64,000 nucleotides of DNA, from positions 372,001-436,000 of the forward strand of contig JABFQY010000001.1 in the NCBI GenBank assembly GCA_013141415.1, in the 5' to 3' direction. The position numbers and the translations under genes were made by a program. This stretch comes from Kiritimatiellaceae bacterium (lineage in GTDB: Bacteria; Verrucomicrobiota; Kiritimatiellia; Kiritimatiellales; Tichowtungiaceae). The notes beneath the pieces were generated by a model. It was not told the origin of the DNA and did not search any database. It saw nothing but the letters and a program-made list of their open reading frames with translations. Position 1 is the first letter of the stretch; the number at the start of each line of letters is the position of its first letter. Shown here in pieces: positions 6,916 through 45,103 of the stretch.

Positions 6916-7539
6916 ATGGCTGAAGAACTGCAACCGTTACTCGAACAGATTCGCAAGGAAGGTGTCGAAAAAGCCGAGGCACAGGCTGCCGAGATTCTTG
7001 CGCAGGCCAAAGCTAAAGCGGCGCAGACCGTGCGCGAGGCTGAAACCAAGGCCAAAGGACTGGTTGCCAAAGCCGAAACGGATGCCGAGGTTTACACGCA
7101 GCGCAGCACGGCCACCCTCGAACAGGCCGCCCGCGACCTGCTGATTACCGTCGGACAGGGGATTGAAAACATTATTGCCGACATTATCGCCGAGTCGGTG
7201 GATTCCGCGCTGAAGATCGAAGTGCTGGAGCAGATGATGGTGAAGATGGCCGAGGCCTGTGCCGCGAACCACGGTGAGACCCGCATCGAACTGCTGATCA
7301 GCGAAGCCGACCAGAAAGAGATGGCGACGTTTTTCGCTAACAAATACCGCGAGAAGATGATTCACGGTATTGAGCTGCACACCGATAAGGAAATCCTGAA
7401 GGGATTCAAGGTCAGTTTTGCCGACGATCACGTCTATTTGGATTTTACCAGCGAAGCCATCGCGGCTTCGCTGACCGCCTTCCTGCGTCCCAAACTGGCC
7501 GCCATCGTCAGCCGCGTGGCGAAGGAACCCGGAAAATAA
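6916..7539 (+). CDS. atpE: V-type ATP synthase subunit E
   Basis: A 207-residue peripheral-stalk subunit. The first 75 residues are an Ala/Lys/Glu-rich helix (AEAQAAEILAQAKAKAAQ), followed by the globular C-terminal domain typical of V/A-type subunit E. It is the first gene of the V-ATPase operon; GGAG lies about 7 bp upstream of the ATG. No subunit G/H gene is present to pair with it in the stalk. Position and gene order match chlamydial and spirochaetal V-ATPase operons. Confidence 0.9.
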   Translation: MAEELQPLLEQIRKEGVEKAEAQAAEILAQAKAKAAQTVREAETKAKGLVAKAETDAEVYTQRSTATLEQAARDLLITVGQGIENIIADIIAESVDSALKIEVLEQMMVKMAEACAANHGETRIELLISEADQKEMATFFANKYREKMIHGIELHTDKEILKGFKVSFADDHVYLDFTSEAIAASLTAFLRPKLAAIVSRVAKEPGK

Positions 7540-7540
7540 T

Positions 7541-7645
7541 CAACAAACAATTTTCAATGCTCAATGAACAGGGAAAGGGCTAAGTGCAGGATGTTCTAAA
7601 CTTGAATATTGAAAGTTGAACATTGTGTATTGAGAACTTCTAATC
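7541..7645. repeat. AT-rich spacer with repeated CAAT/ATTG words inside the ATPase operon
   Basis: The 106 bp between atpE and the DUF2764 gene is far more AT-rich than its surroundings and is built from related words: TTTTCAATGCTCAATGAAC, then TTGAATATTGAAAGTTGAAC and ATTGTGTATTGAG. The two halves are partly inverted relative to one another. It looks like a decayed repeat insertion rather than a normal operon spacer. No terminator or open frame is visible. Confidence 0.4.
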
Positions 7646-8167
7646 GTGAACCACTGGTATCTAGTCGCCTCGCTTCCGTATTTGCGCTTCGGCGAAAAGC
7701 CGCTGGTGAACCGCGCGGCGTTTTTAGCGGCTTGCACTGAATGGCTGGCAGAAGAAGATGTGACGGCACTTCAAGCCGCATTCGAAAACCGGTGCTCACC
7801 GGACAGTGATGTTTCGCGGCGCTGGTGGAATGGCGAGGTTGAGTTGCGCAATGCCGTGGTGCGGGTTCGCGCCAAAAACCGCAATACCGATGCGGCCCGG
7901 TTTATCCGCCCATGCGACGGGTTCAATATGTCGGTTGAAAAAACGGTGGCGGACGCTTTTACGCGCGCCAACCCGCTGGAGCAGGAAGCCGAGCTGGATC
8001 GTATCCGCTGGGCGCAGGCGGACGAGCTGGCTTTGGCTGCTCCATTCGGTTTCCCCGGTGTTTTTGCTTTTGCCATCAAACTGCGCATTGCGGAGCGCTG
8101 GGCCGGTCTGGATGACGCCGCAGGGCAGAGTAAAGTCGAAGAATTTATCGAACAGGCAACCGCTTAA
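7646..8167 (+). CDS. DUF2764 family protein of the V-ATPase operon
   Basis: A 173-residue soluble protein starting at GTG (N-terminus MNHWYLVASLPYLRFGEKP), matching the DUF2764 family found between subunits E and A in chlamydial-type V-ATPase operons. The family's position suggests it takes the role of a missing stalk subunit such as C; this is inference, with no residue-level proof. It ends 15 bp before atpA. The N-terminal SLPYLRFGEKP segment is the best family marker. Confidence 0.8.
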   Translation: MNHWYLVASLPYLRFGEKPLVNRAAFLAACTEWLAEEDVTALQAAFENRCSPDSDVSRRWWNGEVELRNAVVRVRAKNRNTDAARFIRPCDGFNMSVEKTVADAFTRANPLEQEAELDRIRWAQADELALAAPFGFPGVFAFAIKLRIAERWAGLDDAAGQSKVEEFIEQATA

Positions 8168-43513: not shown

Positions 43514-43708
43514 TTATTTCCGCTTATTGCCTTTGCGGGTGGCACCGGTGTAGGCATCCGCTTTCGCCGGAACTGCTTTGATTATCACGGTGCCGTCGGC
43601 ATTGGTGACCGTTACGATGTTTGTCACAACACCATCGGACGGTGATTTGCTTTCAGCGAAGGCGGCGGTTGCGGCCAGCAGAATGACAGCGGTGAAAATG
43701 GTTTTCAT
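43514..43708 (-). CDS. small exported protein, unknown
   Basis: A 64-residue protein with a clear signal peptide (MKTIFTAVILLAATAAFAES), leaving about 45 mature residues rich in Thr and Val (VVTNIVTVTNADGTVIIKAVP) with a basic tail GNKRK. I recognise no family. It stands alone on the minus strand, 42 bp from the MntP-ZIP gene. Confidence 0.55.
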   Translation of the reverse strand: MKTIFTAVILLAATAAFAESKSPSDGVVTNIVTVTNADGTVIIKAVPAKADAYTGATRKGNKRK

Positions 43709-43750: not shown

Positions 43751-45103
43751 TCAAAGCAGAGAGAGCGCGGCGGCGGCGAGCATGCCAGTCAGGACACCCC
43801 AGACGGCGTGGTGATATTTTCCGTAAACGCGGGCGGCGGGGAGCAGTCCGTCGAGTGCGATGAAGACCATAATGCCGGCGCTGGCCGCAGTGAGAAGGTC
43901 GAGCGCCCGGTCACTCATGAACTGGTAGAGCAGAGTATAAACAATCAGCGCGCCGAGCGGTTCGGCCAGTCCGGTGAGCGACGAGAAGCCGCACGCTTTG
44001 GCGCGGCTGCCGGTGGCGTGATACATCGGTAATGCGGTGGCGATTCCTTCAGGAATGTTGTGCAGCGCCAGCGCAATGGCCGCGCCGATGGCGACCGGCG
44101 CTGGTGCGTGCAGTGCCACAACAAAAATGGCCAGACCTTCCGGGAAGCTGTGCGCGACGATGGCCAGTGCGGCGGGCATACCGGTACGGCGGAAGGCGGG
44201 CGTTCCTGCAAAATCTTCGATGCGGTGCGGTTCGTGCGGGTTTCCAAAAGTTGGAACCAGTTTATCAATCAGTGCGGTGATCAGAAGGCCGCCGAAGAAG
44301 GCCGCCATCATTGGAAACGTACTGCCGAGGTCATTCCCGGCGCTCGGCAGCATCTGCCGGAAGGCGATCCAAAGAAGTAATCCGGTCGAAACGCCGAGGA
44401 AAAATGAGAAGCGCCGTGCGCCGCTACGCCGGGTAAAAAAAGCCAGCAGGCTGCCGATGCCGGTCGCCATTCCGGCGGCCAGCGTCAGACCGAAGGCAAA
44501 CCAGACGGTCTGTGAATCGGTGAACATTTCGTGATTTTCTATCAGATGTTCAATCAGCATTTTTGCGCCGAGACCGATCAATACCAGTCCGCCGAAAACC
44601 TCCATTTTCTTCTCGTTCAGGTGGCCGAACAAACGTCCGGAATAAACACCGGCGAAGGAGAGGGCGAAGGTGACGAGGCCGATAATCAGCACCGGTTGCA
44701 GAATCGAGACGCGCAGCATCGAAAGGCTGATGCCGATAGCGAAAGCGTCAATACTGGTGGCGACGGCCAGTGTTAGCAGGGTCGGCAGGTGCAGCGGATT
44801 TTTCGGGCCTGACTCTTCATCTTCGGGCTGCATGGCCTGAATGATCATGTGTCCGCCGACAAAAAGAAGCAGGCCGAAGGCAATCCAATAGTCCACCACG
44901 GAGATAAAACGGTATGCCCATTGGCCGAGCAGCCAGCCGAGGATCGGCATGACGGCCTGAAAAATACCGAAAGCCGCGCCAACGAGCAGGGCGTGACGCA
45001 CTTTGAGGTTTTTAATGGTAATGCCGCTGGTGATGGAAACGGCGAAGGCGTCCATCGCCAGACCGAGTGCGATCAGAAAAATAGAAAGTAGTGGCATAGG
45101 CAA
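43751..45103 (-). CDS. MntP-ZIP fusion metal transporter
   Basis: A 450-residue fusion. Residues 1-185 are a complete MntP (DUF204) manganese exporter with both conserved Asp motifs, LGLAMDAFAVSI and ATSIDAFAIGISL. Residues 195-450 are a ZIP (ZupT-like) importer with HSFPEGLA (about 318) and HNIPEGIA (about 347). About 14 transmembrane helices result. Exporter and importer families are joined without a frameshift. A family A palindrome codes the loop VPTFGNPHEP in the ZIP half. I see no yybP-ykoY Mn riboswitch upstream. Confidence 0.88.
   Translation of the reverse strand: MPMPLLSIFLIALGLAMDAFAVSITSGITIKNLKVRHALLVGAAFGIFQAVMPILGWLLGQWAYRFISVVDYWIAFGLLLFVGGHMIIQAMQPEDEESGPKNPLHLPTLLTLAVATSIDAFAIGISLSMLRVSILQPVLIIGLVTFALSFAGVYSGRLFGHLNEKKMEVFGGLVLIGLGAKMLIEHLIENHEMFTDSQTVWFAFGLTLAAGMATGIGSLLAFFTRRSGARRFSFFLGVSTGLLLWIAFRQMLPSAGNDLGSTFPMMAAFFGGLLITALIDKLVPTFGNPHEPHRIEDFAGTPAFRRTGMPAALAIVAHSFPEGLAIFVVALHAPAPVAIGAAIALALHNIPEGIATALPMYHATGSRAKACGFSSLTGLAEPLGALIVYTLLYQFMSDRALDLLTAASAGIMVFIALDGLLPAARVYGKYHHAVWGVLTGMLAAAALSLL
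44242..44256. repeat. exact family A palindrome inside the ZIP domain
   Basis: TTCCAAAAGTTGGAA, perfect outside the three-base core, read on the minus strand as part of PTFGN. It falls in the variable cytoplasmic loop between ZIP helices, where an insertion would do little harm. Confidence 0.7.

What the first reader, a model, noticed from the sequence alone, without database searches (positions are those of the whole stretch)
43751..45103. Exporter-importer fusion: MntP joined to a ZIP transporter
MntP exports Mn2+ and ZIP/ZupT proteins import Zn2+, Mn2+ and related ions. Both halves keep their functional motifs in one unbroken frame of 450 codons. Opposing transporters in one chain could form a metal-balancing unit, or one half may regulate the other. 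A family A palindrome lies in the ZIP cytoplasmic loop.
Basis: partly seen in the sequence, partly recalled or inferred. Interest (0 to 1): 0.7.

Follow-up and report, generated by a model that had tools for sequence, protein, structure and literature searches.

The report
Manganese exporter fused to altered ZIP
In one genus of uncultured Kiritimatiellales-type bacteria a manganese exporter and a zinc-importer-like protein are joined into a single 14-helix membrane protein, and the importer half has lost several residues that ordinary relatives need or always keep, so it may sense metal or handle a different ion rather than simply import zinc.

Summary
The fusion is real. Window 43751-45097 (-) encodes 448 aa: a complete MntP (residues 1-187), an 8-residue linker and a complete ZupT-type ZIP (196-448). 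It is one intact frame in eight separately assembled genomes of the same genus (78-87% identity), one of them a single 3.9-Mb contig. Both halves are under purifying selection, so a sequencing error is excluded. No other fusion turned up among several hundred MntP genes seen in about 1,550 genomes of four phyla. The ZIP half keeps the six ligands on the moving transport domain, but in every ortholog covering the site it has changed residues invariant or nearly so in 79 unfused ZupTs: M to L (BbZIP M99), S to A, E to Q (S106 position), N to S (N178), E to G (E276, essential in human ZIP2/ZIP4), plus an arginine in TM2. One relative carries a normal ZupT gene 16 nt downstream. Best reading: a working Mn exporter with a metal-binding, non-canonical ZIP module that regulates or assists it. 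A retuned, still-transporting ZIP is the main rival; two ordinary opposing transporters is less likely. The "family A palindrome" inside the gene is a codon coincidence.

The parts
43751..45097 (-). mntP-zupT fusion gene, 448 codons plus stop; ATG at 45097-45095
44537..45097 (-). MntP half, residues 1-187, six TM helices, N-out/C-out by positive-inside rule
44513..44536 (-). linker, residues 188-195, acidic, predicted periplasmic; its Met191 is not conserved (I/L in orthologs), so no conserved internal start
43754..44512 (-). ZIP (ZupT-type) half, residues 196-448, eight TM helices; model aligns to BbZIP structures at Z about 26
44354..44377 (-). ZIP TM2 changed cluster, residues 241-248: L241 (M in 79/79 unfused ZupTs; BbZIP M99), A245 (S 79/79), R247 (aliphatic in nearly all), Q248 (E/D 79/79; BbZIP S106 position)
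44135..44152 (-). ZIP TM4 motif HSFPEG (316-321): H and E kept, N to S (BbZIP N178, M2 ligand)
44045..44062 (-). ZIP TM5 motif HNIPEG (346-351), fully kept
43847..43852 (-). ZIP TM7 D416-G417; G417 sits at the BbZIP E276 position (E in 73/79 unfused)
45050..45052 (-). MntP Asp16 (TM1), invariant
44747..44749 (-). MntP Asp117 (TM4), invariant

Best explanation
SHOWN by sequence: a genuine, genus-conserved fusion gene makes one chain holding a complete 6-TM MntP and a complete 8-TM ZupT-type ZIP. By the positive-inside rule both have both ends outside, so they join through a short periplasmic linker without an extra helix. The ZIP half keeps the metal ligands of its moving transport domain (H316, E320, H346, N347, E350, E379). 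It has lost, in all orthologs, conserved residues lining the static scaffold side of the path: entrance E to Q, mid-path M to L and S to A, exit E to G, plus N to S at the second metal site. INFERRED: the MntP half exports Mn2+ as usual. The ZIP half still binds a divalent metal but no longer passes it through by the ordinary ZIP relay. It acts as a built-in metal-responsive or assembly partner, for example tuning the exporter to metal occupancy or holding it in a ZIP-style dimer. The ZnT5-ZnT6 pair, where ZnT6 is an auxiliary subunit, is a loose precedent for a transporter-fold partner with a supporting role.
For: Fusion and conservation. Purifying selection on both halves. The changes are fixed in every fusion covering the site and absent from 79 unfused ZupTs of other phyla and from the class ZupTs aligned, including the one beside the fusion in G009: (exceptions: one Q248A in fusions; the E276 position is not E in 6/79 unfused). 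BbZIP residue mapping. M99 chelates M1 metal, and S106 with Q207 forms the entrance site (PMC9873690). E276-equivalents are essential in hZIP2 and hZIP4, while M2 loss only modestly lowers transport (PMC11549095). ZIP half stem branch is long (1.55 vs 0.57 for MntP, FastTree). In G009 an ordinary ZupT gene follows the fusion by 16 nt, and a second, GufA-like ZIP is found in most genus genomes, so plain ZIP import is covered elsewhere. Topology. ZnT5-ZnT6: PMC5666860.
Against: No transport or binding was measured. Six of 79 unfused ZupTs also lack E at the E276 position, so that loss alone does not prove inactivity. M2 loss only modestly lowers transport. E to Q at the entrance may mean a new ion preference, since Q occurs at the selectivity-filter position of the multi-metal transporter ZIP8 (PMC10372143; equivalence inferred). 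The long ZIP stem partly reflects a generally faster rate in that half and uneven sampling. No promoter or riboswitch evidence ties expression to Mn or Zn.
Confidence: 0.45

Rival explanations
1. The ZIP half still transports, but with retuned selectivity or direction (for instance an ion other than Zn2+), so the chain is a two-ion exchange or two-step handling unit with MntP.
For: All six transport-domain ligands kept and the half is under purifying selection. The changed TM2 position matches the entrance selectivity filter, where ZIP8, a multi-metal transporter, has Q (PMC10372143). M2 loss is tolerated in BbZIP.
Against: Combined loss of the M99, TM2 Ser, TM2 Glu and E276 equivalents plus a new TM2 arginine is more than a selectivity swap usually needs. 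The E276 equivalent is essential in hZIP2/hZIP4.
Confidence: 0.3
2. Two ordinary, opposing transporters in one chain form a metal-balancing unit.
For: Both domains are complete and in compatible topology.
Against: ZIP half lacks residues invariant or nearly so in unfused ZupTs. An unfused ZupT with normal residues sits next to the fusion in G009. A permanently 1:1 importer-exporter of the same ion would be a futile cycle (general knowledge).
Confidence: 0.15
3. The ZIP half is mainly a structural scaffold or dimerisation or membrane-insertion domain for MntP, with no metal role.
For: Loss of pathway residues; BbZIP is a dimer (PMC9873690; PMC10256678 abstract).
Against: All six transport-domain metal ligands are invariant in the orthologs, unexpected for a mere scaffold.
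Confidence: 0.08
4. Artefact: two separate genes joined by a missed stop or a misassembly.
For: None found. Two of the 14 genus genomes (G002, G012) show broken frames, but in draft assemblies.
Against: Same joint in eight separate assemblies with 78-87% protein identity and divergence at synonymous sites; linker length constant.
Confidence: 0.01

Closest known systems
MntP (YebN) Mn2+ exporter, PF02659, TC 2.A.107, LysE superfamily
   Same: Full-length 6-TM domain, about 40-58% identity to unfused class/phylum MntPs, invariant Asp in TM1 and TM4
   Different: Carries a C-terminal ZIP domain; TM3-region H70 to Y, K83 to H, E87 to Q/T relative to most unfused MntPs; far below the NCBIfam MntP equivalog cut-off (137.9 vs 214 bits)
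ZupT broad-range divalent metal importer, NCBIfam NF003243, ZIP family PF02535
   Same: Full-length 8-TM domain, 42-53% identity, HxFPEG and HNIPEG motifs
   Different: Fused behind MntP; scaffold-side pathway residues changed in all orthologs; just under the equivalog cut-off (248.9 vs 252 bits)
BbZIP (5tsa, 8czj, 7z6n), GufA-type ZIP with solved structure
   Same: Fold of residues about 185-448 (Z about 26, rmsd 3.2, 230 aligned); H177/E181/E211/E240 equivalents identical, Q207 is H and D208 is N as in other ZupTs
   Different: M99, N178, E276 equivalents are L, S, G; R and Q near the TM2 entrance position
ZnT5-ZnT6 heterodimer
   Same: Loose mechanistic parallel only: a transporter-fold partner acting as auxiliary subunit (PMC5666860)
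   Different: Unrelated families, two chains, same fold in both partners

Membership tests
MntP family (PF02659 / TC 2.A.107) | Pfam Mntp domain over curated cut-off | tested here: met
   168.5 vs 24.4 bits, profile 2-152 of 152
MntP family (PF02659 / TC 2.A.107) | Six TM helices with fully conserved Asp in TM1 and TM4 (PMC4608589) | tested here: met
   D16, D117 in all nine fusions; helices in model
MntP family (PF02659 / TC 2.A.107) | Stand-alone protein of about 200 aa | tested here: not met
   448 aa fused protein; a typical size, not a strict requirement
MntP family (PF02659 / TC 2.A.107) | Exports Mn2+ | not testable with these tools
   needs assay
MntP equivalog NF008546 | Curated equivalog cut-off (214 bits) | tested here: not met
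   137.9 bits
ZIP family (PF02535) | Pfam Zip domain over cut-off and ZIP fold | tested here: met
   64.6 vs 35.1 bits; BbZIP Z about 26
ZupT equivalog NF003243 | Curated equivalog cut-off (252 bits) | tested here: not met
   248.9 bits, marginal
ZupT / canonical ZIP importer | Transport-domain metal ligands (H177, E181, Q/H207, D/N208, E211, E240) | tested here: met
   H316, E320, H346, N347, E350, E379 invariant
ZupT / canonical ZIP importer | Scaffold-side pathway residues (M99, TM2 Ser/Glu, E276) and N178 | tested here: not met
   L, A, Q, G and S respectively in fusions
ZupT / canonical ZIP importer | Imports Zn2+/Mn2+/Fe2+ | not testable with these tools
   needs assay

The most novel reading that the evidence does not exclude
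An importer fold has been captured by an exporter and turned into its built-in metal sensor: the ZIP half binds metal on its elevator domain without translocating it, and its position gates Mn2+ export by MntP in the same chain.
Probability: 0.3. Interest if true: 0.8.

Novelty: new variant of a known kind. Interest (0 to 1): 0.55.

Why it matters
It is a natural single-chain combination of a metal exporter and an importer-family protein, apparently limited to one genus, in which the importer half has drifted at the very residues thought to move metal through ZIP elevators. It offers a test of which ZIP residues are needed for binding versus transport, and of whether a transporter fold can be reused as the metal sensor of another transporter.

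Tried and rejected
Artefact or missed stop: rejected. Palindrome in the ZIP loop as a conserved signal: rejected; it follows the codons for V-P-[T/N]-F-G-N and is lost or degraded in orthologs coding V-P-D. Mn riboswitch or other Rfam RNA in the window: none at gathering threshold. Separate translation of the ZIP half from Met191: residue is I or L in several orthologs. Long frames elsewhere as other fusions: G100, G333, G141 show no ZIP similarity; in G1600 the 401-aa frame ends with MntP and holds no ZIP. mntP next to zupT in relatives as fusion source: none within about 1.5 kb in the MntP loci held. Conserved operon: window neighbours cysH/D/N, kinase, ispD not found near the fusion in the stretches held of other genus members; only a 64-aa ORF recurs in G008. 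Nramp as consistent partner importer: patchy, absent in the window genome. The alignment used for the structure model misplaced the N-terminal part of unfused ZupT rows, so the model's half-to-half arrangement (pTM 0.60) is not used. Papers on an MntP-ZIP fusion: none found.

Full report
WHAT IS THERE. The minus strand of the window carries one open frame at 43751-45103. Pfam gives Mntp (31-181, E 1e-49, over cut-off) and Zip (E 1e-17, over cut-off). NCBIfam gives ZupT over 196-447 (E 5e-74, 248.9 bits against a cut-off of 252) and MntP over 4-185 (E 3e-40, 137.9 against 214). An AlphaFold2 model (mean pLDDT 84, pTM 0.60) has six TM helices in 1-187 and eight in 195-447. Residues from about 185 to the C-terminus match BbZIP crystal structures (best Z 26.1, rmsd 3.2 A, 230 residues), far above the next unrelated folds (Z about 8). 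Lysines and arginines are concentrated in alternate loops (mean 18.9 inside vs 3.1 outside), consistent with both ends of both halves outside and a periplasmic linker of about 8 residues.

IS IT REAL. Yes. The same joint occurs in one frame without stops in eight of 14 genomes of the genus, the seven relatives at 78-87% identity, and one of these genomes is a single 3.9-Mb contig (G009). A ninth (G012) has the joint on a contig-end fragment and a second, frame-broken copy; G002 has a frame break inside the MntP half; four genus genomes lack it. Pairwise dN/dS is about 0.05-0.16 for the MntP half and 0.06-0.26 for the ZIP half. Both halves are maintained. The linker length is constant, and its only Met is not conserved.

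HOW WIDESPREAD. In 387 genomes of the phylum, MntP was found in 117, six of them in the genus. Outside the genus, frames were typically about 185-300 aa; the exceptions checked (G100, G333, G141) contain no ZIP. Bacteroidota (28 of 395 with a match), Bacillota (312 of 398; only the best rows were listed) and the phylum of a Pseudodesulfovibrio (122 of 395) gave no fusion; the one 401-aa frame with a full-length MntP was checked and has no ZIP. The scan of 84,980 species genomes returned fusions only as loci L017 and L018, which correspond to the genus members G008 and G012; all other top hits were ZIP only. Limits: G-handle searches are samples, the collection scan uses short peptide patterns and keeps 80 loci, and not every row was shown. 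L018's record is titled Pontiellaceae (Kiritimatiellales, Kiritimatiellota).

WHAT IS DIFFERENT ABOUT THE ZIP HALF. Against 79 unfused ZupTs from many phyla, the fused ZIPs keep the transport-domain ligands (H316, E320, H346, N347, E350, E379; 79/79 identical in the unfused set) but differ at positions that hardly vary there: M to L at 241, S to A at 245, E/D to Q (one A) at 248, N to S at 317, T to I/V at 324, S to L at 445 (all 79/79 in the unfused set) and E to G at 417 (73/79 E). R247 is present in all nine fusions where unfused proteins have V, I, M, T or A. Unfused ZupTs of the same class, and the unfused ZupT beside the fusion in G009, keep the ordinary residues. So within this sample the changes belong to the fused form. 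A PDB alignment maps L241 to BbZIP M99, S317 to N178, D416-G417 to H275-E276, and Q248 to S106 if the one-residue gap in TM2 is closed. M99 is the only ligand of the metal centre on the scaffold domain, and S106 with Q207 forms the proposed entrance site (PMC9873690). The E276-equivalent is essential in human ZIP2 and ZIP4; loss of the second metal site only modestly lowers transport (PMC11549095). In ZIP8 what I take to be the matching TM2 position (Q180) is part of a selectivity filter (PMC10372143; the positional match is my inference). The changes therefore cluster on the static side of the elevator, at entrance, middle and exit, while the moving site is nearly intact.

HISTORY. The fused ZIPs form one clade on a long stem (1.55 changes per site vs 0.57 for the MntP half), but the ZIP half also evolves about twice as fast inside the clade, so the stem is not by itself proof of a burst. 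A slower model also gave a long stem and warned of long-branch joining (unfinished). In G009 an ordinary ZupT starts about 16 nt after the fusion stop behind a purine-rich AAAGGAG, and most genus members also hold a separate GufA-like ZIP.

HOW IT PROBABLY WORKS. MntP is probably functional: its invariant residues are kept, apart from TM3-region changes H70Y, K83H and E87Q/T (K83H also occurs in an unfused MntP). For ZIP I think a metal-binding, non-canonical module is most likely, acting as regulator or partner of the exporter (0.45). A retuned transporter is close behind (0.30). Two ordinary opposing transporters would need the ZIP half to work without residues that normal relatives always or nearly always keep, and would run a futile cycle if both moved the same ion (0.15). 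None of this has been measured.

PALINDROME. TTCCAANNNTTGGAA is a real dispersed motif here: five exact copies in the window against 0.02 expected and 23 with up to two mismatches against 3 expected; a close variant was absent from 727 kb of other-phylum loci. The copy in the ZIP loop is codon-driven. Copies also sit roughly 30-100 nt upstream of the fusion start in several relatives.

Noticed in passing
window 14118, 44242, 53578, 60070, 61189 and near-matches: Dispersed palindrome TTCCAANNNTTGGAA, often in pairs 20-40 nt apart; 5 exact vs 0.02 expected, and a close variant absent from 727 kb of loci of other phyla. Function unknown; possibly operator, terminator or REP-like element.
   Followed up: partly
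L127 1399, L129 1401, L130 1466, L131 1401 (fusion ATG at 1501): The same palindrome lies about 30-100 nt upstream of the fusion start in several relatives, but not in the window genome.
   Followed up: partly
upstream of fusion ATG in G003, G004, G006, G008, G009: Similar GCTAnnGTTTC-like block ending a few nt before ATG, with no evident Shine-Dalgarno; may be a -10 box of a leaderless transcript.
   Followed up: no
L149 about 7069-7878 (G009): Ordinary unfused ZupT gene about 16 nt after the fusion stop codon; a long frame resembling a GltS-type Na+/glutamate symporter (by eye) follows it.
   Followed up: partly
window 43514-43708 (-): Small 64-aa ORF with signal peptide-like start downstream of the fusion; a 57% relative lies just downstream of the fusion in G008.
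   Followed up: no
L156 (G002) and L157 (G012): Fusion copies with frame breaks (after residue 130 and near residue 313); draft assemblies, so error or decay cannot be told apart.
   Followed up: no
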